The translations under genes were made by a program, and so were the position numbers. Source: a virus. From it: a stretch of DNA of 64,000 nucleotides. The notes below the pieces were generated by a model, which worked only from the letters and a program-made list of their open reading frames with translations, was not told where the DNA came from and did not search any database. Of the stretch, positions 1,255 to 59,642 are shown one piece after another. The first letter of the stretch is position 1. Each line of letters begins with the position of its first letter. The DNA lies in the IMG/VR virus record IMGVR_UViG_3300010396_000006, positions 41,648 through 105,647 of that record; one strand, 5' to 3'.

Positions 1255-1292
1255 AAAATCTAGTTGATTTTCCGAAATGATGTCGATAGAGT
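1255..1292 (+). promoter_or_regulatory. Promoter with A/T dyad, P1.3
   Basis: A dyad AAAATC-TAGTT-GATTTT (1255-1271) overlaps a -35 TTGATT (1264-1269), followed by a 17-base spacer and TAGAGT (1287-1292). The same arrangement of -35, 17-base spacer and TAG-type -10 occurs on the minus strand at 37488-37516. Confidence 0.6.
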
Positions 1293-1301
1293 CAGATCAC
1301 G

Positions 1302-1324
1302 CCGCTGATTCAGTAACATCGCGG
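1302..1324 (+). promoter_or_regulatory. 5'-end CAGTAAC stem-loop, copy 1
   Basis: CCGC/GCGG and GAT/ATC pair, with one bulged T, around the loop TCAGTAAC. The stem starts about where transcription from the promoter at 1264-1292 should begin. It is one of five leader hairpins displaying CAGTAAC, and lies 41 bases ahead of the start codon at 1359. Confidence 0.55.
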
Positions 1325-1358
1325 TGAACTTCTGAATCATTCTTGAAAGGAAATCGCC

Positions 1359-4604: not shown

Positions 4605-5426
4605 GATAAGCTATCGTCTGCGGAGCGAAGGAAGCTCAGAAGGCAGTTAAAGGAACAAGGCGAATCAATACCCGCTGACCTAACGCCTAAGCCCAATCGT
4701 AAAGCCCATCTGGATAAACTCCCCAATACGGAAACAAAGACACCGAAGACGGAGAGTAAACCAAGGGGCCAAGCGAAGCCAAAGCCCAAAGCGAAAGCCA
4801 AGCCCAAGCCAAGAAAGACTGAGACAACACCGGCCGGTAATGAATCAGTCGATCAACAGAACGAGACGGAACAACCCAAGCCAGTCACGGTAGAAGCGGT
4901 CCCCGCTCCCGAGTCTGAAATCTCACCCGAATCTGTGTCGGGGGGATGGGGGGACGGTGGCAAATATGGTCCATCTGGTCTGACGAAAACGCACGAACAG
5001 CGGATGGTTGTCAGTTCATTCAATTGGCAAAACCGCAATCGATTCCCGCTGGAAAAGGCTGTTGACGAAAACCTGAAGATCGTTGATGCGGTTGATGGCA
5101 AGTCGGATGTCTATCAGGAAATCCTGACCACGACTGTCGAGATGATGAGATCGAAGTCGGCGAGGTCAAAGGGCATTGGATTGCGGGCCGGCGTTCAACT
5201 CGTGACGGCCGTGCAAAAAGACGACCATGCCAAGTTGAGGGCTGAACTGCGTCCGATGGTATTCACTCCTCCCTCCCCTGCGCCAGAGATGCCGGCTCCC
5301 GCAGTTCCGGCCCATGTCGACCAAAGCATGAACATCGATAACAGCCATCGCGTCGTGATCTTCAACATTCCGGATAACGGACGAGATCCACAATTGAAGG
5401 CGCAATTGACTGGGGCCGCTCAATGA
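4599..5426 (+). CDS. terS: Probable terminase small subunit
   Basis: This is a 275-residue protein. The assignment rests on position: it overlaps the large terminase by four bases and shares its promoter. Residues ~1-100 are very basic and low in complexity (KPKPKAKAKPKP-type repeats), then acidic/proline-rich. Residues ~140-225 are helical (SFNWQNRNRFPLEKAV ... MMRSKSARSKGIGLRAGVQLV) and may be the oligomerisation or DNA-binding core. A proline-rich linker and a short tail follow. Small terminases are poorly conserved, so homology cannot be claimed. AAGGGA lies ten bases before the ATG, and the start codon is inside the fourth GAAA hairpin. Confidence 0.6.
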   Translation: MEDKLSSAERRKLRRQLKEQGESIPADLTPKPNRKAHLDKLPNTETKTPKTESKPRGQAKPKPKAKAKPKPRKTETTPAGNESVDQQNETEQPKPVTVEAVPAPESEISPESVSGGWGDGGKYGPSGLTKTHEQRMVVSSFNWQNRNRFPLEKAVDENLKIVDAVDGKSDVYQEILTTTVEMMRSKSARSKGIGLRAGVQLVTAVQKDDHAKLRAELRPMVFTPPSPAPEMPAPAVPAHVDQSMNIDNSHRVVIFNIPDNGRDPQLKAQLTGAAQ

Positions 5427-7150
5427 GTTCCGTTCTCGAACAGTACGGACCAAATGCGACGATCGTAGGACCGCAACCGGGTCCCCAGACTCAGGCCATG
5501 CAGAGCGCTGCCGATATCGTGATCATGGGTGGGGCGAACGGAGGGGGCAAATCGCATTGGATTCTGCTCGAAGCAGCGCGTCATGCCCGAGTGCCAGGAT
5601 ATCGAGCTGTCGTGTTCCGGCGTGAATCGACTGATATCACTGACCCCGGCGGACTCCAAGATACGTCGATGACGATCTATCCCCAGCTTGATGGATGGTT
5701 CCGATCCAACAAACTGGATTGGATATTCGATCCGGATGCTCGCATTTCATTCCGAGGACTGCCGCACGCCAAGGATGCTATCTCGTGGGATGGAAAAGAA
5801 CTGGCGTTCATCGGCTTTGATGAATTGCAATTGTTCACCGAATTTCAATTCTGGTATCTGTTCAGCCGCATGAGGTCCAGTTGCGGCGTCAACCCCGTTA
5901 TTCGAGCGACATGCAATCCCGTTCATGAGGAAGATCCGACCGGCGGATGGTTGAAGATCCTGATTGGCTGGTGGCTCAACTGGGAAACCGGGTTTCCAAT
6001 TCCAGAGCGATCCGGGAAAGTGCGATGGTTCGTGCGGTTGAACAATGAACTTCACTGGGGCGATTCCCGCGAAGAACTGATTGAGCGATTCACCGATCCG
6101 GACAGTAAAGAGGAAGGCCCAACCGTCTTTCCGATGTCGATCACGTTCATCCCGTCGAAGTTACGGGACAACCCGATACTGATGAACTCGTCGCCCCAGT
6201 ATCGAGCCAGCTTGATGGCGTTGCCGGACTATCTGAAGAAACAGAAATACGAAGGCAACTGGAACGCGAAACTTCAGGCCGGAACATTCTTCAAGATTGG
6301 TGTGATGGGCCGCAAAGGTCAGATCATTCCGATAGAGGAACTGCCGGCGATCGGCCTACGTTATTGCCGTGCCTGGGATCTGGCATACACGGAAGGGGCT
6401 GGAGACTGGACCGTTGGTGACTTATTGGCGACTGATGGGAAAGGAACATTTTATCTCATTGATCAAGTTCGTGGACAATGGGAATCAAGCAATCGCAATG
6501 ATCGAATGTTGGCAGTCGCCGCTGACGATGAAGAGAAATACGGTCGAGTCAAGATCTGCGTTCCACAAGATCCATCGGCCGGAACTGAAATTTGTGAGCG
6601 ACTGCTGAAAATGTTTGCCGGTTATTGGGTTGTCGGTCGAAGGCCAATCAAGAACAAGGCAGAGCGAGCGTCGGCTTATTCGTCGTCATTCAATGGCGGA
6701 AATGTGAAGTTCGTCAAAGCGCCATGGAATTCCGGATTGCTTCAACGAATGGATTCATTCCCGACGAAAGATATCCCAGATGATGAGATTGACGCATCTG
6801 CGGACGCCTATGAAGAACTCAGAGGCCCATCGCCTGGGGGAGCAATGGCTGATCAAAGTGCCGTTGCCAACCCGACAGAGAAGGAAAACGTCAATCCGTT
6901 CCGCGGGTTGCTGGAAAGCTATGTTCGCGAATTCTGGTCGACCATGTCGAAGAATGAACCAACCTGTCCCGAGTGGAAGGGATCGTTGGCAAGATTCGTT
7001 GATGATGTCGGTGAGCGCCCAAGCGACGATCACAAACTCGCAAGACGCGATCGCAACGAACTATGGGGTCCAGCAAACTTCTACTGGCAACTGGGCGATG
7101 AACCGCCTCCACCGATCAAAAGAGGCTGGGGCAAGGCAATGGCGGATTGA
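5423..7150 (+). CDS. terL: Terminase large subunit
   Basis: This 575-residue protein is the ATP-driven motor that packages phage DNA into the prohead through the portal and cuts it. The ATPase domain shows a Walker A variant GGANGGGKSH (residues ~36-45) and a Walker B AFIGFDEL (~127-134) with the catalytic D-E pair. The RNase H-like nuclease domain begins near residue 315 (RAWDLAYTEGAGDWTVG, first catalytic Asp) and closes with DDEIDASADAYEEL (~453). The last ~110 residues form an extra C-terminal extension. The upstream gene overlaps by four bases. The portal is 7 kb downstream, unusually far. A truncated ATPase paralogue lies at 12208. Confidence 0.95.
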   Translation: MSSVLEQYGPNATIVGPQPGPQTQAMQSAADIVIMGGANGGGKSHWILLEAARHARVPGYRAVVFRRESTDITDPGGLQDTSMTIYPQLDGWFRSNKLDWIFDPDARISFRGLPHAKDAISWDGKELAFIGFDELQLFTEFQFWYLFSRMRSSCGVNPVIRATCNPVHEEDPTGGWLKILIGWWLNWETGFPIPERSGKVRWFVRLNNELHWGDSREELIERFTDPDSKEEGPTVFPMSITFIPSKLRDNPILMNSSPQYRASLMALPDYLKKQKYEGNWNAKLQAGTFFKIGVMGRKGQIIPIEELPAIGLRYCRAWDLAYTEGAGDWTVGDLLATDGKGTFYLIDQVRGQWESSNRNDRMLAVAADDEEKYGRVKICVPQDPSAGTEICERLLKMFAGYWVVGRRPIKNKAERASAYSSSFNGGNVKFVKAPWNSGLLQRMDSFPTKDIPDDEIDASADAYEELRGPSPGGAMADQSAVANPTEKENVNPFRGLLESYVREFWSTMSKNEPTCPEWKGSLARFVDDVGERPSDDHKLARRDRNELWGPANFYWQLGDEPPPPIKRGWGKAMAD

Positions 7151-9780: not shown

Positions 9781-9809
9781 TTGCAAAAATCAGTAAGATT
9801 TCACAAGAT
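9781..9809 (+). promoter_or_regulatory. Predicted promoter of leader RNA A
   Basis: TTGCAA (9781-9786) and CAAGAT (9804-9809) are 17 bases apart. The spacer is the 15-base dyad AAATCAGTAAGATTT plus two bases. The same 15-mer precedes the -35 of the promoter at 59530, and its inverse precedes that at 21859. The -10 is weak, and the placement leans on the 5' hairpin starting four bases after the implied start site. Confidence 0.4.
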
Positions 9810-9815
9810 GCCAAT

Positions 9816-9912
9816 TAACCGATTGTTGGGCAATCGGACTTGATAGACGCGGCTTGTCTGTGTCGGCCTGTCGTAATACTGCCCAACGGTATTGCGACAG
9901 GCTTTTTCTTTT
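9816..9912 (+). ncRNA. Kissing-loop terminator RNA, copy A
   Basis: A 7-base-pair hairpin CCGATTG/CAATCGG (9819-9837, loop TTGGG) is followed 28 bases later by a 14-pair terminator stem (9866-9879 with 9889-9902, loop TGCCCAACG) and a T-rich run. GTTGGGCA across the first loop is perfectly complementary to TGCCCAAC in the terminator loop. Copies B (56038) and C (37481, minus strand) have the same layout with different sequences. The RNA lies directly upstream of the gene at 9930, so it could also act as that gene's attenuator. Confidence 0.5.
9866..9910 (+). terminator. Rho-independent terminator within leader RNA A
   Basis: The stem GCCTGTCGTAATAC/GTATTGCGACAGGC has 14 pairs with a single wobble, and is followed by TTTTTCTTTT. 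It lies only 20 bases before the start codon at 9930. Confidence 0.8.
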
Positions 9913-9929: not shown

Positions 9930-11678
9930 ATGACAGTCTATGGCAGTGTGTGCGTGAGTGTTCCAACCGGTCCATCGTCAACGAAAAGCTTCTCGTTTGG
10001 GGTCCCAGGCGAGATCGTGGATCGGATGTGTGCAAGACCGGATATTGAATGGGAACCCCAATTCAAGGCGATGGTCAACAAGGCAATCAACGGGCCACCG
10101 ATCGAATCAGACAATAAGGAAGAACTGAAACCGCCATTCGTTTCCGGCCAGAAAGTGATCTGCGTTCTGAACAGCAAAAATCTCGGCGGATTGACTGTCG
10201 GTGAGGAATATACGATCTGGAGATGCTTGAAGGACTCGATGATGTCGAGCGGCTTCAAATGCGAACTCAAGGAAAAGATGGTGGGCCAGATGTATTGTGC
10301 ATCGCTGTTCAAAGCGAAGTCGGAGTCTGGAAAACTGTCAAACGATGAACCACCATTCCAAGTCGGCGATCATGTTGAGATGCTCAAAGAGAGAGATCAA
10401 AAACCAACCGGGGTTGCCAGTCTCGTAGTTACGGGCGTTCGTTCACCGGAGCAGATGGCGGGGCATTGGACGCTTCCAGGCGTCAAGGCAAACGAAGGTG
10501 AGTGGTTTGTGTCGTGCGATCCAAAATGCACTGCATGGGGACCGGCAGGATATTTTCGCAAGGCGTTCTTACCGCCATTCGCAGTCGGTGAGGAAGTGTT
10601 GGCGAATTACAACTTTTGGTCTGACTTGAATACGCTGGCTTCTGCAATCCAGATCCACGAGAACAAGCCATATCGAATTAGAGCAATCCAAAAGGAAGTC
10701 GACTGCAATTCCGGTTGGAAAGTCTGGGTGGAAGGACAGCAAGGCGGTTGCGATGCGTCGAAGTTCAGGAAGATGGATTCAATCGGAGAACAAATACGAA
10801 AGTCGCTCGAAGGAACATATCGCAATGCCCAGGAACTTATTGATTTTGAAGTCGGCCATGAAGCGGCAATTGCGAGAACGAACTATTTCGCATATCACGG
10901 ACCGTTCGAAAGCGGCGATTTGCGATGGGGCCAAGTCAATATTGGCGAAAGACGTCGATGGTTGAACGCCGCGAAAGCTGTCGAAGCAATCGTGAAAGAT
11001 TGTGACGAATTTCGTATCGCCAATTCGATCGAAGAACTGATCCAGCAGAACAGCGGACCGGAAGATCTGAACCTCGAAGCTGGCGTGAACAAACTGGAAC
11101 TGGCGTTGCAGTGGGTGAAAGATCGGATTGTCCACGAAAAGGCGAAGATCGCACCGCAACCGTTCCAAGTCGGAGAAGTAGTTCAGGCTGTTGAAAACGT
11201 GATGAGCGGAAACGGAAAAGGAACTGTCGCCGCTGGTTGTCATATCAAAGTATCGGCCTGCGAACGACGCAACCCTGATATCTGTCCTTCAGGCTGGATC
11301 GTGTATGCCGAAGATTGTGACCACTGGGGCGGATTCGATTCAGCGAAGTTCAAGAAAGATCCGATTGTTAATCCGGTCTCGACAGATCAATGGAAATTGC
11401 CCAATTCAGGGACTGTCAAATTCAGTCCCATCATTAATCCAAAACCAGGACAGATCCCCATCTACAGGGGTGATGGTCAAGTTGAATGGATTGATCTTCC
11501 GAAAGATCAAACAAGATCGATAGCGTGGGAATACAGAGTAACTCCATGTCTGGATGTCATTGATGAAGGATTTGATTCTGGCGTTGTCGACAGATTGAAT
11601 AACAGCGGTGAAATCGGCTGGGAATTTGTAGCGTTCACTCCTATGACAGGACGAGCCGTATTCAAGCGCAGGAAGTGA
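9930..11678 (+). CDS. Multi-repeat SH3/KOW-like protein with C-terminal DUF4177-like domain
   Basis: This 582-residue protein has AAAGGG before its ATG. Four short beta-barrel-like units begin with a near-identical signature: PPFVSGQKVICV (~70), PPFQVGDHVEML (~143), PPFAVGEEVLAN (~215) and QPFQVGEVVQAV (~410). A helical segment (~285-400) separates the third and fourth. The last ~55 residues (AWEYRVTP ... GWEFVAFTP ... AVFKRRK) match the DUF4177 pattern. The same barrel unit occurs singly in the proteins at 2706 and 33720. Repeated SH3/KOW folds usually mediate nucleic-acid or protein contacts; the role here is unknown. Transcription into the gene must pass the terminator at 9866. Confidence 0.7.
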   Translation: MTVYGSVCVSVPTGPSSTKSFSFGVPGEIVDRMCARPDIEWEPQFKAMVNKAINGPPIESDNKEELKPPFVSGQKVICVLNSKNLGGLTVGEEYTIWRCLKDSMMSSGFKCELKEKMVGQMYCASLFKAKSESGKLSNDEPPFQVGDHVEMLKERDQKPTGVASLVVTGVRSPEQMAGHWTLPGVKANEGEWFVSCDPKCTAWGPAGYFRKAFLPPFAVGEEVLANYNFWSDLNTLASAIQIHENKPYRIRAIQKEVDCNSGWKVWVEGQQGGCDASKFRKMDSIGEQIRKSLEGTYRNAQELIDFEVGHEAAIARTNYFAYHGPFESGDLRWGQVNIGERRRWLNAAKAVEAIVKDCDEFRIANSIEELIQQNSGPEDLNLEAGVNKLELALQWVKDRIVHEKAKIAPQPFQVGEVVQAVENVMSGNGKGTVAAGCHIKVSACERRNPDICPSGWIVYAEDCDHWGGFDSAKFKKDPIVNPVSTDQWKLPNSGTVKFSPIINPKPGQIPIYRGDGQVEWIDLPKDQTRSIAWEYRVTPCLDVIDEGFDSGVVDRLNNSGEIGWEFVAFTPMTGRAVFKRRK

Positions 11679-14320: not shown

Positions 14321-14341
14321 CAGGCAAGGATGTCACAAATC

Positions 14342-17300
14342 ATGAGCCGACGCCGCAACCGCAACCGTCGCGTTGAGAACTATCGCAAGAATTCGGATCG
14401 GGTTGTTGAGCATCCAAATGTTCCGGCCCCCGAACTGAACGACTCCCAAATCAAGTCGATGGCGTCTCAGATGCGGGCGGCTCTGGCCGGAAGCTTCGGC
14501 GGCGCTCAAGTCACGAATCACCGCGAAGAAGCTCTCCACTATGAGGGCAATAGCTACGTCAATATCGCGGCCATCTGCGCCCAAATGATGATGGTGACGA
14601 TAACAGCCTATGTCGACGGATCGAACCAGCTTCGACAGCAGTCGGTCCGGAAGTCGCTGCGAGGTCTCGTCGGAAGCCGATGGAAGTCTCAATATGGGGT
14701 TGATGAGGCATCGTCGAAGCAACTCGAATCAGACCATTACCTGATGCGATTGCTGTCGAAGCCAAATCCGCACGAACCGGGCAGCATGTTCCGGTATCGG
14801 CAAACTCTTCAACTCAGGCTCACTGGAGGTGCGTTCCTGTGGAACGTCCCAAATATCAACGGCCGGACGTGCGAACGGTACGTCATCCCCACCACATGCC
14901 TGACGCCGGTCTATCCAGACAACACGTTGCCGTACGGTGGTTATCGCGTTCAACCAAACTGTATGCGATGGATTCCACTGGTTGACGATGGATTCGTGAT
15001 CGGGACCCCGGCCCTGATGCGAGTGTTGGGCATGATCATTGATGCCCGAGAAATCCAAAAGGTTGGCTATCCACATCCGATCTGGCTGGATGACTTCCAA
15101 AGCCCGATGTCTGCTGGCGCTCAGTGGGTCGATGCCGAACGATCGATCAACATCGCACGGGCAATGGGCATCAGCCGCGGCATGAATCCGAGCGGTTTCC
15201 TTGAACTATCCAAAGAATACATGGGCATCGAACAAGATGCGCTGAACATCACTCAGCGGAAACTCGATCGACAATATGGCGGCGTCAACAACACGGGCAA
15301 GGTCATTGCCGTGGCTCCCGATACCAAGTTCACCGGATACGATCGAAGCCCGAAAGACATGGAATACCATGAAGGGTACTTGGATCACCGGGAAGCGAAT
15401 CAGTCTCTACACGGCGTTCATCCGATCATCACTGGCGGACAGCCCCCCGGCGCATACGCGGCCTACTACGCCGCCATGCGAGCATTCGACAACAACACGT
15501 TGACTCCCATTTGTGACATGCTGGCGGAATCAGACACGTTCCACATTGCACCGCAATTCGGCGAAGGGATCACGATCGAGATCGAGCCAAAGCCGATCAA
15601 CGATGAGGACGAACTGAATTCACGTCTCCAGGTCGATGGTCAATTGGGGATCATCAAGGTCAATGAAGCGCGAGCATTGCGAGGAATGCCGCCATTGGAC
15701 GGAGCGCAAGGAGAAAAGCTGTGCGGACCGACTTCAAAGGATAAGGTTGGTCAGGATCAAGACAGCGACAATCCATCCAAGCCGAAGAAACCAAAGCAGT
15801 CTGGCGATGCGCCGTCAACTCCCGAGGTCCAAGAAGCCGAACAAGCGGACGTCCCCAAGGCTCCCGAAAATCCCATCGTCGGCAAGAGTGAATCAAAATC
15901 ACTTCAAGCCGCAATGGAAGGGATGAAGGAGGCGGACGAAGACTACATTCAAGAAATAGTTGCCAAGGCGTTGGATTCGCGACTGAAGGCGATGCAACCT
16001 GCCGAGAAGCCAAAGCGGAAGTATTCCTCGACGCAGTTTGATCTGCCTGCCGGTCTCGCCGAAAAAGTGCAGGAGATGGCAGCCCTGATCAATCCGGCCG
16101 ATCTCGCATCGGATGGAATCGAAGAAAATCCGCACGTGACTTGCTTGTACGGGCTGACCGAAGAATCACCCAATGATGTCAAGAAAGCCGTCAAGGGAAT
16201 CTCGGCCGGTCCGATCGTTCTTGAATCGCTGTCGTTGTTCCCGGCTGGTGACAAGCTTGCTCAGCATGGCGGCGAACAGTTCGACGTTTTGAAGATCAGC
16301 ATCGGCGGAAAGTTCATTCACGAGATTCACAATGCGATCGCAGAATCGTGCGAGTATGAAACCGATTATGCCGACTATTCTCCTCACTGTACGATCGCCT
16401 ACTTGAAGCCGGGAAAAGGCCGCAAGTATGTGACGATGAACAATCCAGTGGATGGGATGACGTTCATTCCTGACAAGCTGATCTTCAGTAGCAAAAACCG
16501 AACGGTCTCGGCAATTCGATTGAGCGTTCTGAAATCAGTCGAAGAACAACCATCAGAAGCTCAGATTACTGCCGGCAATTACAAAAAAGATCACATCACA
16601 ATTCAGGGGCTAAGGATCTCAATCGAAAATCCGAAAGGATCTGTTCGAAGTGGTCGTGACGATGATGGCAATGAGTGGTCAACGAAAATGCGGAATGATT
16701 ACGGCTACATCAAAGGAACGAAATCAGATTCCGATGGTGATCACATTGATGTCTTCGTTGGGCCAAATCCAAGTTCAGAATTGGTGTTCGTAATTGATCA
16801 GGTCAATCCGCAAAGCGGGCAACATGACGAACACAAATGCATGTTGGGATTCGATTCGAAAGATCAAGCGAAGTCTGCCTATCTCGAAAACTATTCCAAG
16901 GGTTGGAAAGGCTTCGGCGGCATTACTCCAATGCACATGGATCAATTCAAGGAATGGCTAGACAGCGGAGATTCATCAAAAGGAATCGCGAGAAAATCTC
17001 TCACGGCAGCATTCTCCGAATCAGAAATGAAGGGCCACAATCCAATCAGCGACATCCAAGCCATTGGAAAGAGACTCGCTGAATCCGATTGTGGAATGCC
17101 CGGATACGGTCAGATCTTTATCAAGGAAAACGGATCTGGCCAAGCATGGTATGTCGGTGGCGACGGAGATGAACGAGGATTCGATAAGACTGTCATTCAA
17201 GAACTGAAGAAAGTCACGGGGATTGACGAAGTTCGTTATGAGTCTGAATCGTTCCCGCCCGATGGGGAAGGATGGATTCAGGTCTATCCGAAAGTGTCGA

Positions 17301-20300
17301 AGCGTAAATCTCTCGGCATGTCCGAAGGGATCGGGTCAGATGGAGGATTCGCCGTCGCTTCCGAAGACGAACGATGCCCAAAATGTCCCAAATGCGGATC
17401 ACGGGAAACGCATCATGCTAGAACTGATGGCACAGGGAACGCGATCTGTAGCAATTGCAAATCAATTTTCACTGATCCTGATTATGGAAAACAGAAATCA
17501 GTTTCGTTTCCATCGTCAGAAGTCGTACCGGGCAACAACGGCCATCAATTCCCCAAGAACACATTGATTCTTGGTGGGGATCAAGTTCTGATGCCACCAG
17601 AGTCAGAACTCAAATCCAAATGGATCACGATTCATCCTGGGGGAGACAAAGACGCAACTGGCATTCACATCCTGATTGACGAAGACGGCGAAATCAAAGG
17701 CGGTCCGGCCGAACTGCGAGACAAAGGCATCCGCAAGATGTCTGACTTCGGGAAAGAAGACCTGAAGCCAGTCAAACCAAAAGACAATCACGAGAAGGCC
17801 GCATTCAACGCCAGCAAGCGAGCCGATCAAGCATCCGCCGATGCTAAAGAGTCGGGCGACCTGTTCGACCATATTGCGGCTAAAGAAGCCCACATGCACG
17901 CCGCAGCCCATCACAGCAAAGGCGGCAATGAAGATCAGGCGTCATATCACAGAAAGGCGGCTCAACAGCACGGTTCAGCCGCGACACCAACGGCTCCAGC
18001 GTCAAACGGACAACTGAGCGACGAAAAGATCATCCAGGCAATGAAGCCATCCGTTGATCGCAGCGGCATGGTTGAGGCCGAAGAACTGCGATCGATGCCA
18101 GAATTCGCTGGGATGTCGAAAGAGAAATTCGACCAACGAATGATGGACATGGCCAAAGTTGATCAGCCGGGCGGACCGAAGGTCTCGTTGCACCGATACG
18201 ACCGAGCCGAATCGCTGTCAGCGGACGATAAAAAAAAGATGATCTTCGATCCGGATGCGCCGGCACGATTCGAAGATGGACAAAAGGGAGCGTATTACAA
18301 TGCGGTCTCCATCCGCAAATCGTTGTCAGAAATGAAATCGCATTGGATTACGATCCATCCTCATGGCGATGAGCATGATGGAACGCACGTTTTGATCGAT
18401 GGAGAAGGGAATATCGAAGGCGGTCCCGAAGGACTGGCGAAACGTGGGATTCACAAGCTGTCCGACTTTGGGAAAGGCGGCGAATCAGCAGACAAACCAC
18501 ACGAAACCCGTGAAGAGTGGGCGAAGAGACATTCCGATGCCGCCGATCATTGGTTACATGGAGTGAACAATGATCTGGCAGCCGTGCATCAAGAACACGG
18601 CGACTTGATCACAAAAAAGCACATGACGGACAGCTTTCGAAATCACGTCAATACCGGAAGAATGACCCCAGATCAATATGAGGATCATGTTTCTAAGGGA
18701 ACCATTCTCGGTGGACACGATTACGAACGCGCTCAGCATGTCGAGCAGAAAATCCATGAGATCAAAAATCGTCCGCTAACTGTCCCGGAGCCAGATGGAA
18801 AGCATCCATACGTTGAACCGCCCGCCAAGCCGCCGGAAGAAAAGCCAGAAATCCGACCAGACATCGACGCTCCGATCAGCAAGAAAGACACGCCTCGCGA
18901 AACGGCGGCAAAGCAAAAGAAGATTGACGATGATTATGCGTTTGCTCGCAATTCATCCATCCCGAATGTCGGCGAAGATGTTGCCGATTCGGCTCGTCAC
19001 AAGCGAAATGCTTGGCGTGGATTGGAAGATGCGGAATCCAATGGAACCGCCGAATCAATGGTGACTCGTGATAATCTGCTCAAGGCCGAACCGCACAACT
19101 TGATGTCTCATGCCGGAAAACATCCACTGACATCACTGGCCATGCATTACGCGATGAGATCGTTCCCAGCGAAACCATCCAGCAATCGCGAAGTGGCCAA
19201 TGCCAGCGATCGGAAGGACTATCACGAAGCGTATCAGAGCATCAAAGCAAAAGCCGAGCATCTGGCGGAAACAGAATCCGATCCACGGGCAGCCGCAGAG
19301 AAGCTACGAGAACACGTCGGCAATCATCTGAAGGGATTGAGGGAGCGGAAGATTCCCGGACCCACAATTCCCGTGGCCGATCGATACAACAAGACCGCGA
19401 ACAATTTGGTTGGAATGCACAAGGCGTTACGATTCGCCAGCTACGGCCGACCATCGGCAAATAGCGTTCATGGCAAGATGGAAGAGTTCTCAAAGGCGAT
19501 GGCCGGGAAATATGGACTTCCAGAAAAGTATGAACCTGAAGCGGCCAAGCAATTCGCCTCCCATATTGAGACTCACGCCAAGGACATTATTGACGGGAAA
19601 TCGCTTCCACAGTCATTTGGCATTAAGGGAGAAAAGAAAAACGAATTTAATCCTGCCGATCGATACGTCAAGCATGCTGAACGAGCCGGGGGCAAGGATG
19701 TCAGTCACCAAACCGCAACGGGAGTCTCGGCGGCAAACTCCGTCGTAAACGACTTCGGGATGCGTGGCGTCCAATGGGGTAACAGCGTCACTGACGACGA
19801 ACGCCATCATCACGCTGCCAAGGTTGTCGAAGCGTTGACCGATCTGGCCGATACTCTCGGCATCAAGCCGGCTGATCTCAGTCTCGGCGGAAAGCTGGCC
19901 TTGGCCATTGGCGCTCGCGGTAAGGGAACTGCCTCGGCTCATTACGAACCGCATACCCAGGCCATCAACCTGACGCGGGCCAGCGGAGTCGGTACTCTCG
20001 CCCATGAGTGGGGACACGCCTTTGATCATTCACTGGAGAATTTCGCGAATCGTGCGACGAGTGCGGTCTATCACAGCGAAAACTATCGATCCAGTCCGGC
20101 AATGCAAAAGCTGACATCCGATTTCCGATCATCGGGATTCACGAATCGAATTCATAGTGAGGTTCGTGATATGGTGCGTCAGGGCCTGATGTCGAAAAAG
20201 AAAGCGGAATACTGGCTATCAACCAGAGAACAATTCGCCCGTTGCTTCGAGAGTTATGTTCAACACAAGCTGGCTGACACGAATCAGAAGAATACGTATC

Positions 20301-21037
20301 TTGCTGGTCTGATTTCGGACGGCGGCTTGTGGCCGACCAAGGAAGAAACGGCCAAGATGGCCCCCGCTTTTGACAGTCTGTTCGCTGAATTCCGCAAACA
20401 AAAGTATGGAAGCGAAAATCGGATTGATCAGTCTCGATCGGAAATCAAATCGGCAGTCTTGGATTTGGTTGGTCAATCCGTCTTTAAATCGTCGCGATGG
20501 ATCACAATCCATCCGCACGGTGAAGACGCGAAAGGCGTCCATATCCAGATCAATGACGACGGCGAGATCCTGTCAGGTCCCGCACATCTTCGCGACAAGG
20601 GAATTACCCACATGGGGGATTTCGCGAAGCGGGGAAGCAATCAAGCGGCCGTGGACGAACTGAAGCCTCACGCTCTCGAATTCCTGACCGAGCAACACAA
20701 GCTGAGAGAACATCACAAAGCCGAAGCTCGCAAACTGACTGGCAAGAATGCCGGCAATCTGGCGATGTCGGAAAACAGCTATCACGATCATTCGGATGCT
20801 CATCGATTCGAGACCGCCGCTCGCACATTCGCCCGAGAGAATCCCGATGCTGGATTGAATCCAGATGCTCACGACACGCCGGCCAAAGTCTGGGAGCTAA
20901 TCCGGGAGGGCAAGAAGAAAGCCCCGCTGATCAATTCGAAGGAAGTCCACGAGACAGCCAGAGCCTGGGTGAAGAATCACCGAACGAAGCGTGCGCCGGT
21001 AGGCACATACGAACACGATTCCGATTGGAACTTCTGA
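14342..21037 (+). CDS. Portal protein fused to a giant polyvalent C-terminus
   Basis: This is a 2,231-residue protein; start 14342 has AAGGA ten bases upstream, with ATG 14330 also possible. Residues ~1-480 are an HK97-type portal, the dodecameric DNA channel at the head vertex. Then follow in order: a proline/lysine linker; a 2H phosphodiesterase-like domain with two H-x-T motifs (PHVTCL ~598, PHCTIAYL ~681); an inorganic-pyrophosphatase-like domain as found in polyvalent proteins (~740-880, DGDHIDVFVGP); a zinc ribbon (~1011-1045); and three WITIHP-DGEI-GP repeats (~1093, ~1334, ~2052). A zincin domain resembling LPD1 has LAHEWGHAFDH (~1886) and a downstream REQFARCFESY glutamate. Portals usually have 400-550 residues. 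The extra enzymes are probably packaged with, and perhaps injected from, the capsid; that is inference. Confidence 0.9.
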   Translation: MSRRRNRNRRVENYRKNSDRVVEHPNVPAPELNDSQIKSMASQMRAALAGSFGGAQVTNHREEALHYEGNSYVNIAAICAQMMMVTITAYVDGSNQLRQQSVRKSLRGLVGSRWKSQYGVDEASSKQLESDHYLMRLLSKPNPHEPGSMFRYRQTLQLRLTGGAFLWNVPNINGRTCERYVIPTTCLTPVYPDNTLPYGGYRVQPNCMRWIPLVDDGFVIGTPALMRVLGMIIDAREIQKVGYPHPIWLDDFQSPMSAGAQWVDAERSINIARAMGISRGMNPSGFLELSKEYMGIEQDALNITQRKLDRQYGGVNNTGKVIAVAPDTKFTGYDRSPKDMEYHEGYLDHREANQSLHGVHPIITGGQPPGAYAAYYAAMRAFDNNTLTPICDMLAESDTFHIAPQFGEGITIEIEPKPINDEDELNSRLQVDGQLGIIKVNEARALRGMPPLDGAQGEKLCGPTSKDKVGQDQDSDNPSKPKKPKQSGDAPSTPEVQEAEQADVPKAPENPIVGKSESKSLQAAMEGMKEADEDYIQEIVAKALDSRLKAMQPAEKPKRKYSSTQFDLPAGLAEKVQEMAALINPADLASDGIEENPHVTCLYGLTEESPNDVKKAVKGISAGPIVLESLSLFPAGDKLAQHGGEQFDVLKISIGGKFIHEIHNAIAESCEYETDYADYSPHCTIAYLKPGKGRKYVTMNNPVDGMTFIPDKLIFSSKNRTVSAIRLSVLKSVEEQPSEAQITAGNYKKDHITIQGLRISIENPKGSVRSGRDDDGNEWSTKMRNDYGYIKGTKSDSDGDHIDVFVGPNPSSELVFVIDQVNPQSGQHDEHKCMLGFDSKDQAKSAYLENYSKGWKGFGGITPMHMDQFKEWLDSGDSSKGIARKSLTAAFSESEMKGHNPISDIQAIGKRLAESDCGMPGYGQIFIKENGSGQAWYVGGDGDERGFDKTVIQELKKVTGIDEVRYESESFPPDGEGWIQVYPKVSKRKSLGMSEGIGSDGGFAVASEDERCPKCPKCGSRETHHARTDGTGNAICSNCKSIFTDPDYGKQKSVSFPSSEVVPGNNGHQFPKNTLILGGDQVLMPPESELKSKWITIHPGGDKDATGIHILIDEDGEIKGGPAELRDKGIRKMSDFGKEDLKPVKPKDNHEKAAFNASKRADQASADAKESGDLFDHIAAKEAHMHAAAHHSKGGNEDQASYHRKAAQQHGSAATPTAPASNGQLSDEKIIQAMKPSVDRSGMVEAEELRSMPEFAGMSKEKFDQRMMDMAKVDQPGGPKVSLHRYDRAESLSADDKKKMIFDPDAPARFEDGQKGAYYNAVSIRKSLSEMKSHWITIHPHGDEHDGTHVLIDGEGNIEGGPEGLAKRGIHKLSDFGKGGESADKPHETREEWAKRHSDAADHWLHGVNNDLAAVHQEHGDLITKKHMTDSFRNHVNTGRMTPDQYEDHVSKGTILGGHDYERAQHVEQKIHEIKNRPLTVPEPDGKHPYVEPPAKPPEEKPEIRPDIDAPISKKDTPRETAAKQKKIDDDYAFARNSSIPNVGEDVADSARHKRNAWRGLEDAESNGTAESMVTRDNLLKAEPHNLMSHAGKHPLTSLAMHYAMRSFPAKPSSNREVANASDRKDYHEAYQSIKAKAEHLAETESDPRAAAEKLREHVGNHLKGLRERKIPGPTIPVADRYNKTANNLVGMHKALRFASYGRPSANSVHGKMEEFSKAMAGKYGLPEKYEPEAAKQFASHIETHAKDIIDGKSLPQSFGIKGEKKNEFNPADRYVKHAERAGGKDVSHQTATGVSAANSVVNDFGMRGVQWGNSVTDDERHHHAAKVVEALTDLADTLGIKPADLSLGGKLALAIGARGKGTASAHYEPHTQAINLTRASGVGTLAHEWGHAFDHSLENFANRATSAVYHSENYRSSPAMQKLTSDFRSSGFTNRIHSEVRDMVRQGLMSKKKAEYWLSTREQFARCFESYVQHKLADTNQKNTYLAGLISDGGLWPTKEETAKMAPAFDSLFAEFRKQKYGSENRIDQSRSEIKSAVLDLVGQSVFKSSRWITIHPHGEDAKGVHIQINDDGEILSGPAHLRDKGITHMGDFAKRGSNQAAVDELKPHALEFLTEQHKLREHHKAEARKLTGKNAGNLAMSENSYHDHSDAHRFETAARTFARENPDAGLNPDAHDTPAKVWELIREGKKKAPLINSKEVHETARAWVKNHRTKRAPVGTYEHDSDWNF

Positions 21038-21888: not shown

Positions 21889-21901
21889 TCTGAACATGTG
21901 A

Positions 21902-21926
21902 GCGGGTTGAACCAGTAACTCCCCGC
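21902..21926 (+). promoter_or_regulatory. 5'-end CAGTAAC stem-loop, copy 2
   Basis: GCGGG/CCCGC close a 15-base loop containing CAGTAAC (21913-21919), 24 bases after the -10 and 44 bases before the start codon at 21964. This is the least regular of the five stems. Confidence 0.45.
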
Positions 21927-21963
21927 GAAATTCTCTTGTTCCTGCTATCAGAAGGTGCGACGT

Positions 21964-25119: not shown

Positions 25120-25137
25120 CGGCCCATCGCAACGCGA

Positions 25138-25157
25138 CTGATGACAGTAACCATCAG
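25138..25157 (+). promoter_or_regulatory. 5'-end CAGTAAC stem-loop, copy 3
   Basis: The perfect 6-pair stem CTGATG/CATCAG encloses ACAGTAAC. It lies 25 bases after the -10 and 48 bases before the start codon at 25200. Confidence 0.6.
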
Positions 25158-25199
25158 AAACGCTGATTCTTGCGAAGAGATCTCTGAAGGAATTCGACT

Positions 25200-33647: not shown

Positions 33648-33661
33648 CAGGCCATCGCGAC

Positions 33662-33683
33662 TCAGTTGACAGTAACCAACTGA
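33662..33683 (+). promoter_or_regulatory. 5'-end CAGTAAC stem-loop, copy 4
   Basis: The perfect 7-pair stem TCAGTTG/CAACTGA encloses ACAGTAAC. It is 22 bases after the -10 and ~40 bases before the start codon at 33720. Confidence 0.6.
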
Positions 33684-33719
33684 CGGAATCGCCTCTTAAA
33701 AACAACGGAGATCTGAATC

Positions 33720-37389: not shown

Positions 37390-37481
37390 GAAAAAGACCC
37401 GCCTCCAACCGGTGACAGCGGTCGAAAGCGGGCCAAACGAACATCAAATTAAAACCAATTGCAGGCTGTCACCACTGCGTT
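37390..37481 (-). ncRNA. Kissing-loop terminator RNA, copy C
   Basis: Read on the minus strand, a short 5' hairpin GCAG/CTGC (37478-37461) carries GTGACAG in its loop. After ~30 bases comes a terminator (outer stem GCCCGC/GCGGGT, inner stem ACCG/CGGT, loop CTGTCAC) followed by CTTTTTC. The loops are perfectly complementary over GGTGACAGC/GCTGTCACC. A well-formed promoter lies just upstream. No minus-strand gene follows, which argues for a free-standing RNA rather than a leader. Confidence 0.55.
37391..37433 (-). terminator. Minus-strand terminator of RNA copy C
   Basis: The minus-strand stem GCCCGC/GCGGGT with an inner ACCG/CGGT helix is followed by CTTTTTC (plus-strand A-run at 37391-37395). 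Confidence 0.6.
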
Positions 37482-37487
37482 GCGAGC

Positions 37488-37516
37488 ATCCTAGACAGAT
37501 GATTTAGGAAAATCAA
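37488..37516 (-). promoter_or_regulatory. Minus-strand promoter of RNA copy C
   Basis: On the minus strand CTAGTTGATTTTCC repeats the sequence at 1260-1273. TTGATT, a 17-base spacer and TAGGAT are all present at the same spacing as in the plus-strand promoter at 1264-1292. Confidence 0.65.
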
Positions 37517-56005: not shown

Positions 56006-56035
56006 TTGAAAATTCACACGAAGTCTGTTTAGACT
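56006..56035 (+). promoter_or_regulatory. Promoter of RNA copy B
   Basis: TTGAAA (56006-56011), an 18-base spacer and TAGACT (56030-56035), preceded by an AAATC/GATTT pair at 55982-55993. The start site falls at the first base of the 5' hairpin of RNA B. Confidence 0.6.
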
Positions 56036-56037
56036 CC

Positions 56038-56149
56038 CGTTGCAATCTGGTGCCTCAGACTGCAAAATACCTTTCGAATACCGGGTTCGCCCGTGTTCAA
56101 TAAGCCGTTTCAACCTGAGGCACCGGGTTGTACGGCTTTTTTCTTTTCT
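56038..56149 (+). ncRNA. Kissing-loop terminator RNA, copy B
   Basis: The 5' hairpin pairs TTGCA/TGCAA and TCTG/CAGA (56040-56065) around loop GTGCCT. A small CGGG-TTCG-CCCG hairpin lies in the linker. The terminator (AAGCCGT/ACGGCTT plus inner AACC/GGTT, 56102-56138) shows AGGCAC in its loop and is followed by a long T-run. GGTGCCTCAG (56049-56058) is perfectly complementary to CTGAGGCACC (56115-56124). Copies A and C share this plan with different loop sequences that stay complementary. Confidence 0.6.
56102..56148 (+). terminator. Rho-independent terminator of RNA copy B
   Basis: Outer stem AAGCCGT/ACGGCTT and inner AACC/GGTT are followed by TTTTTTCTTTT. Confidence 0.8.
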
Positions 56150-56169: not shown

Positions 56170-56445
56170 ATGTCGCGTGCGACGGATCTTGATCGTGACT
56201 CTGTGGAATCGAATCCAGCCAAAGCGATGGGAACTGGGTTCGCGGTAAAACGGGTGCAATCCCCTCCCGTTGGATGGTCGCTCGTTGCATCCAACGAATC
56301 CGCCTGCTGGATGGCCATACGGTCTGATGCGGAAAAGTTCACAGTGAATCCCCGCTTCCATCCATCTTTATTGATTGGAGGGGAGGGGGAGGAACTGTGG
56401 AGACAACTGGACGTCCACCGATCGCTGCGGAATAGTTTGTGGTAG
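56170..56445 (+). CDS. Doubtful 91-residue ORF
   Basis: An ATG frame of 91 codons follows RNA B, without a clear ribosome site. The translation has a possible small domain (GWSLVASNESACWMAIRSDAEKF ... GEELWRQLDVHRSLRNSLW). The DNA also contains a perfect 9-pair hairpin CGTTGGATG/CATCCAACG near 56269-56297. This stretch could therefore be coding or a second structured RNA; neither is secure. Confidence 0.35.
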   Translation: MSRATDLDRDSVESNPAKAMGTGFAVKRVQSPPVGWSLVASNESACWMAIRSDAEKFTVNPRFHPSLLIGGEGEELWRQLDVHRSLRNSLW

Positions 56446-59558: not shown

Positions 59559-59571
59559 CTGAATCAGTTCG

Positions 59572-59591
59572 CGGTTGTCAGTAACCAGCCG
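59572..59591 (+). promoter_or_regulatory. 5'-end CAGTAAC stem-loop, copy 5
   Basis: CGGTTG/CAGCCG (6 pairs with one wobble) encloses TCAGTAAC. It lies 20 bases after the -10 and ~50 bases before the start codon at 59643. Confidence 0.6.
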
Positions 59592-59642
59592 TGTGACAAA
59601 TCTGACCGCCTGAGAGTAGGCCATAAACTGGAGTCGTGAATC

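What the first reader, a model, noticed from the sequence alone, without database searches (positions are those of the whole stretch)
56038..56149. Short phage RNA whose 5' loop is complementary to its own terminator loop (copy B)
A promoter with TAGACT leads directly into a two-step hairpin with loop GTGCCT. About 60 bases later a strong terminator exposes AGGCAC; the complementarity extends to 10 bases. Two further loci (9816 plus, 37481 minus) have the same plan, length (~92-112 nt) and position behind a phage-type promoter, but different loop sequences, each complementary within its own RNA. Three independent compensated pairs argue for a conserved kissing-loop structure. I know of no RNA family with this architecture.
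Basis: partly seen in the sequence, partly recalled or inferred. Interest (0 to 1): 0.88.

Follow-up and report, generated by a model that had tools for sequence, protein, structure and literature searches.

The report
Phage small RNAs with kissing ends
Two related phages carry five short RNA units, each starting with a hairpin whose loop is exactly complementary to the loop of that RNA's own terminator, with different loop letters in every copy, so the pairing itself seems to be what is kept; what the RNAs do is still unknown.

Summary
Copy B (window 56030-56142) has a sigma70-like promoter (TTGAAA-18-TAGACT), a 5' hairpin and an intrinsic terminator, with a perfect 10-nt complement between the two loops. 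Copies A (9819+) and C (37478-) have the same plan, with 8 and 9 nt. A descriptor scan found two more copies (9 and 7 nt) in the only near relative I could find, a 76-kb phage. Cognate loops match over 7-10 nt; non-cognate loops match over at most 5. The promoter was not used in the search, yet all five copies have one 4-9 nt before the hairpin (about 1% of random positions do). With the promoter added, the descriptor finds exactly these five in the two phages. It finds three weak, unconvincing hits in 1.78 Mb of other DNA. No Rfam family matches. A loop-loop (kissing) RNA design kept by compensatory change is therefore well supported. Caveats: in B and its counterpart D the predicted minimum is a longer helix that swallows both hairpins; the family is known from two phages only; no transcript has been seen. 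Function is inferred: an end-closed small RNA made by early termination. Four of the five copies stand just before an open frame, so a terminator-leader role is nearly as likely.

The parts
56006..56035 (+). Copy B promoter: TTGAAA-18-TAGACT
   Evidence: 9 of 12 consensus positions
56040..56065 (+). Copy B hairpin P1 at the expected 5' end; loop GTGCCT; pairing stretch GGTGCCTCAG 56049-56058
56082..56093 (+). Copy B small middle hairpin P2, CGGG-TTCG-CCCG (counterparts CGGA-TTTATT-TCCG in D and CGGA-TTCA-TCCG in E)
   Evidence: read from sequence; weak on its own
56102..56142 (+). Copy B terminator P3 with T6 tail; loop stretch CTGAGGCACC 56115-56124 pairs with P1 loop
9781..9809 (+). Copy A promoter (weak), TTGCAA-17-CAAGAT, spacer holds the phage dyad AAATCAGTAAGATTT (9787-9801)
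9819..9837 (+). Copy A hairpin P1, CCGATTG-TTGGG-CAATCGG; pairing stretch GTTGGGCA 9825-9832
9865..9907 (+). Copy A terminator P3 and T tail; loop stretch TGCCCAAC 9880-9887; 582-codon frame starts at 9930
37488..37516 (-). Copy C promoter: TTGATT-17-TAGGAT
37461..37478 (-). Copy C hairpin P1, GCAG-TGGTGACAGC-CTGC; pairing stretch GGTGACAGC
37391..37434 (-). Copy C terminator P3 and T5 tail; loop stretch GCTGTCACC

Best explanation
Each copy is a short phage transcription unit giving a non-coding RNA of roughly 90-105 nt. A sigma70-type promoter starts the RNA within a few bases of hairpin P1; after a 26-37 nt linker, transcription stops at terminator hairpin P3. The loops of P1 and P3 pair by about 6-7 or more Watson-Crick pairs and tie the 5' end to the 3' end. 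Shown by sequence: promoter, P1, terminator and the exact, copy-specific complementarity. Inferred: the RNA is made, the pairing forms within one molecule, and it closes the RNA so that both ends resist decay and the linker is displayed as the working part. In copies B and D the contact can grow from a kiss into a long helix, so these may switch between two shapes. Four copies lie about 25-55 nt before an open frame and may also act as terminated leaders. The end-closed small RNA is my first choice, with termination control in cis a close second.
For: Five copies in two phages with five different loop pairs: 8, 10, 9, 9 and 7 perfect complementary nt; non-cognate pairs 5 at most; of 120 permutations only the true pairing reaches the observed sum. 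A promoter 4-9 nt before P1 in 5 of 5 copies, not used in the search, against about 1% of random positions. The joint descriptor finds exactly these five in G000 and G001. Three of the few strong terminators in G000 and two of those in G001 carry the design. P1 and P3 stems are unrelated in A, C and E while the loops still match, so selection on the loops is more likely than a recent inverted duplication. B and D lie at the same place past the tail genes with the loop letters changed. A's promoter carries the phage's own dyad. Copy C has no gene behind it on its strand, which favours a stand-alone RNA.
Against: No transcript data. Energy models without kissing terms favour a long-range helix in B (-47.4 against -39.3 kcal/mol) and D (-38.3 against -28.2). 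Only two phages, and little sequence homology between most copies, so common descent is not shown. Copies A, B, D and E sit close before open frames, which a leader reading explains better than a stand-alone RNA. RNAfold closes one further weak pair inside the P1 loops of A, B and E, so these loops must open slightly to kiss.
Confidence: 0.45

Rival explanations
1. A terminator leader (attenuator): the transcript normally stops at P3, and pairing of the P1 loop with the P3 loop, or in B and D the long helix, sets how often RNA polymerase reads through into the gene behind it. The short RNA may also act back in trans, as in IsrK.
For: Frames begin 26 nt (A, with AAAGGG before the ATG), about 54 nt (E, with AGGAAGGA before the ATG) and a comparable distance (B, D) after the T tail. 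In A there is no room for another promoter before the 582-codon frame. In B and D two mutually exclusive shapes exist. P1 forms before P3 is made, so it can act in time (inference).
Against: Copy C runs against all neighbouring genes and has none behind it. In A, C and E the terminator stem is not out-competed by the long helix. B's frame has no clear ribosome site and D's is 46 codons. Any short intergenic unit in a compact phage lies near the next gene.
Confidence: 0.32
2. The two loops pair between molecules rather than within one, giving dimers or rings of the RNA, somewhat like the packaging RNA of phi29.
For: Each RNA has two mutually complementary loops, different per locus, which would keep the rings separate.
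Against: The linker of 26-37 nt is long enough for an intramolecular contact (my estimate). The phage has an ordinary large terminase and three such RNAs, so a packaging role like phi29's is not expected. One loop lies on a terminator, unlike pRNA.
Confidence: 0.08
3. No RNA-level meaning: the complement is a DNA inverted repeat (paired protein sites around a promoter) or the trace of an inverted duplication of a hairpin, which automatically gives complementary loops.
For: In B and D the complement runs on into the stems with wobbles, as an old inverted duplication would leave.
Against: Five unrelated sequences cannot be sites for one protein. In A, C and E the stems do not match while the loops do.
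Confidence: 0.08
4. Chance matches picked out by eye and by a descriptor.
For: A looser version of the scan gives a few matches per genome in shuffled sequence.
Against: 0.05 expected against 5 observed once the independent promoter is asked for; nothing convincing in 1.78 Mb of other phage DNA.
Confidence: 0.04

Closest known systems
IsrK RNA of Salmonella prophage Gifsy-1 (PMC4825925)
   Same: Phage promoter, short RNA ending at an intrinsic terminator in front of an open frame, part of the transcripts reading through; the short RNA acts on its own longer transcript.
   Different: No loop-loop contact between a 5' hairpin and the terminator is described in the passages I read; one locus, not several; no sequence relation was found or specifically tested.
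P4 CI RNA / seqA-seqC and c4 antisense RNA (Rfam RF01695)
   Same: Phage RNA in which complementary stretches of the same leader pair and control termination or translation.
   Different: No Rfam match. There the CI RNA is processed out of the leader; here the unit has its own promoter and terminator and the complement lies in the terminator loop.
HK022 put RNA (PMC9378689)
   Same: An element of the nascent phage RNA that acts on transcription termination.
   Different: Put suppresses pausing and termination as nascent RNA by itself; it is not defined by pairing with a terminator loop.
phi29 packaging RNA and other kissing-loop RNAs (purine and guanidine-II riboswitches)
   Same: Contact made by Watson-Crick pairing of two hairpin loops (from general knowledge).
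   Different: Different order of helices, no terminator loop involved; the conserved loop letters of guanidine-II are absent here.

Membership tests
c4 antisense RNA (RF01695) or any Rfam 15 family | Covariance-model match at gathering score | tested here: not met
   Only a tRNA in the window; nothing better than E 7 at copy B; only a tRNA in the parts of G001 holding D and E
IsrK / P4-type terminated leader RNA | Own promoter and intrinsic terminator in front of an open frame | tested here: inconclusive
   Met for A, E; weak frames for B, D; not met for C
IsrK / P4-type terminated leader RNA | Read-through transcript regulated by the short RNA | not testable with these tools
   needs transcript data
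phi29 packaging RNA | phi29-type packaging motor, no large terminase | tested here: not met
   Large terminase, phrog_979, E 1.5e-121 at window 5423-7150
Kissing-loop RNA (structural class, not a family) | Two hairpin loops with full Watson-Crick complementarity kept by compensatory change | tested here: met
   Five copies, 7-10 nt, non-cognate at most 5
Kissing-loop RNA (structural class, not a family) | Loop-loop contact in the folded molecule | not testable with these tools
   needs chemical probing; energy model prefers an extended helix for B and D
HK022 put RNA | Acts on RNA polymerase to suppress downstream termination | not testable with these tools
   needs in vitro transcription

The most novel reading that the evidence does not exclude
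A new phage RNA class in which a 5' hairpin reads the loop of its own terminator: the kiss forms while the terminator is being made and decides between release and read-through, each copy having its own private loop code so that several such switches work in one genome without crosstalk.
Probability: 0.25. Interest if true: 0.82.

Novelty: new variant of a known kind. Interest (0 to 1): 0.6.

Why it matters
Sequence-based RNA discovery cannot see a family whose only constant is that two loops fit each other. If real, this is a structured RNA family with almost no conserved letters, used several times per genome with separate codes, and tied physically to transcription termination. It can be tested with in vitro transcription of short templates and loop swaps, and it suggests a search rule (promoter, 5' hairpin, loop complementary to terminator loop) that can be run over all phage genomes.

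Tried and rejected
No close DNA relatives of B in 50,697 phage records. Eight protein-based scans of viral contigs gave one near relative with the loci covered (G001). Relatives L101-L104 are short fragments of the structural region that end before the B/D position. Eighty loci sharing only a different gene showed no excess of long loop matches. Single hits were looked at and dropped: the L022 hairpin appears to lie within a coding frame; L114 has a 4-nt terminator loop and no clear promoter. Search for trans targets of the five RNAs in their own genomes: longest complements no better than shuffles; a 14-nt match of E lies in what looks like coding sequence. A covariance model was not built: it cannot hold a kissing contact and the copies share too little sequence. 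Literature searches for such an architecture returned nothing matching.

Full report
What was checked. The window is positions 41648-105647 of a 105,647-base virus record. GGTGCCTCAG and CTGAGGCACC are complementary over 10 nt. Copies A (9819, plus) and C (37478, minus) have the same order of parts, with 8 and 9 complementary nt.

More copies. A phage that shares the head and tail genes (G001, 76,387 bases; capsid protein 63-71% identical) was fetched whole and scanned for two hairpins with complementary loops, the second followed by a T run. Two strong hits came out. D at 56351 has loops AATCCAG and CTGGATT in P1 and P3, seven against seven nt with all paired, and nine with the neighbouring positions. 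E at 65453 has CTGAAGG and CCTTCAG. B and D both lie just past the tail gene cluster, so they may be positional counterparts in which the loop letters have changed together.

Is it chance? Comparing all P1 apices with all P3 apices gives 8, 10, 9, 9 and 7 on the diagonal and at most 5 elsewhere; only the true pairing among 120 permutations reaches the observed sum. This matrix was computed on copies chosen for complementarity, so the independent test is the promoter. The scan did not use it, yet all five have a sigma70-like promoter (7-9 of 12 positions) ending 4-9 nt before P1; random positions reach that in about 0.9%. Two weaker hits in G000 have none, and 0 of 5 hits in 1.36 Mb of more distant phage DNA have one. 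Shuffled G000 and G001 together give 0.9 hits, 0.05 with a promoter. With looser stems and a required promoter, exactly A-E are found in G000 and G001, one weak hit in G003, and three hits in 1.78 Mb of other DNA, two of which are one place seen twice; the same loose rule gives 1.3 hits in shuffled G000 plus G001.

Anatomy. P1 begins 4-9 nt after the -10 box, that is at or near the expected first base. A linker of 26-37 nt follows; in B, D and E it holds a small hairpin of the form CGGR-N4-6-YCCG. P3 is a terminator with a T tail; stems are -15 to -27 kcal/mol. Strong terminators are rare in these phages, and several of the best ones carry this design.

Kiss or long helix. In A, C and E the separate hairpins are favoured by about 5-18 kcal/mol over a fold forced to pair the loops as a long-range helix. 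In B the complement continues, with wobbles, from the loop into the 5' arm of P1 and the 3' arm of P3, and the long helix is favoured (-47.4 against -39.3). D is similar (-38.3 against -28.2). The energy model has no term for kissing, so these numbers do not decide what the molecule does, but for the very copy given the kissing form is not the computed minimum. The feature common to all five is the loop-loop complement. Because the stems of P1 and P3 are unrelated in A, C and E, a simple inverted duplication does not explain it.

Setting. A lies 26 nt before a 582-codon frame with a good ribosome site and no room for another promoter. E lies about 54 nt before a frame with AGGAAGGA before its ATG. 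B and D stand before a 91-codon and a 46-codon frame of doubtful status; D lies between two glycosyltransferase-like genes. C runs against its neighbours with no gene behind it. So both a stand-alone RNA and a terminator leader remain possible. A's promoter carries a perfect copy of the dyad AAATC-N5-GATTT, which occurs perfectly at seven other places in this phage, all upstream of another kind of hairpin leader; this ties A to the phage's own control circuit.

Known things. Rfam 15 has no match. Searches of the paper library found no description of this architecture, within the limits of that library. The nearest working analogues are the phage RNAs that are both small RNA and terminated leader: IsrK, where part of the transcripts read through the terminator and the short RNA acts on the longer one (PMC4825925), and P4 CI RNA, which pairs with stretches of its own leader to cause termination (described in the same paper). 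HK022 put RNA (PMC9378689, abstract only) shows that a nascent phage RNA element alone can act on termination.

Verdict. The structural observation is sound and strengthened. The function is open; I put 0.45 on an end-closed small RNA and 0.32 on a leader switch, and the two may coexist.

Noticed in passing
window 1290-1340, 21895-21945, 25125-25175, 33650-33700, 59560-59610 (plus three at record positions 1359, 13669, 20075, outside the window): A second RNA-like element: eight 5'-leader hairpins with an invariant CAGTAAC in the loop and differing but self-complementary stems, most behind a promoter and shortly before a gene start. Not found in such a setting in G001. Looks like a binding site for a phage regulator; worth its own study.
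   Followed up: partly
window 1256, 9787, 21841, 25052, 33601, 59512 and record 13602, 20032: Perfect dyad AAATC-N5-GATTT at eight sites in G000, at or upstream of the -35 region; seven lie upstream of the CAGTAAC leaders, the eighth is RNA A. None perfect in G001. Probable operator or activator site of a phage regulon.
   Followed up: partly
window 14330-21037: One 2235-codon frame that joins a portal protein domain at its N-terminal side (residues about 120-580) to polyvalent-protein-like segments.
   Followed up: no
window 59105-59068, minus strand: Another strong terminator whose loop CATCGATT holds the self-complementary ATCGAT, which could pair between two molecules.
   Followed up: no
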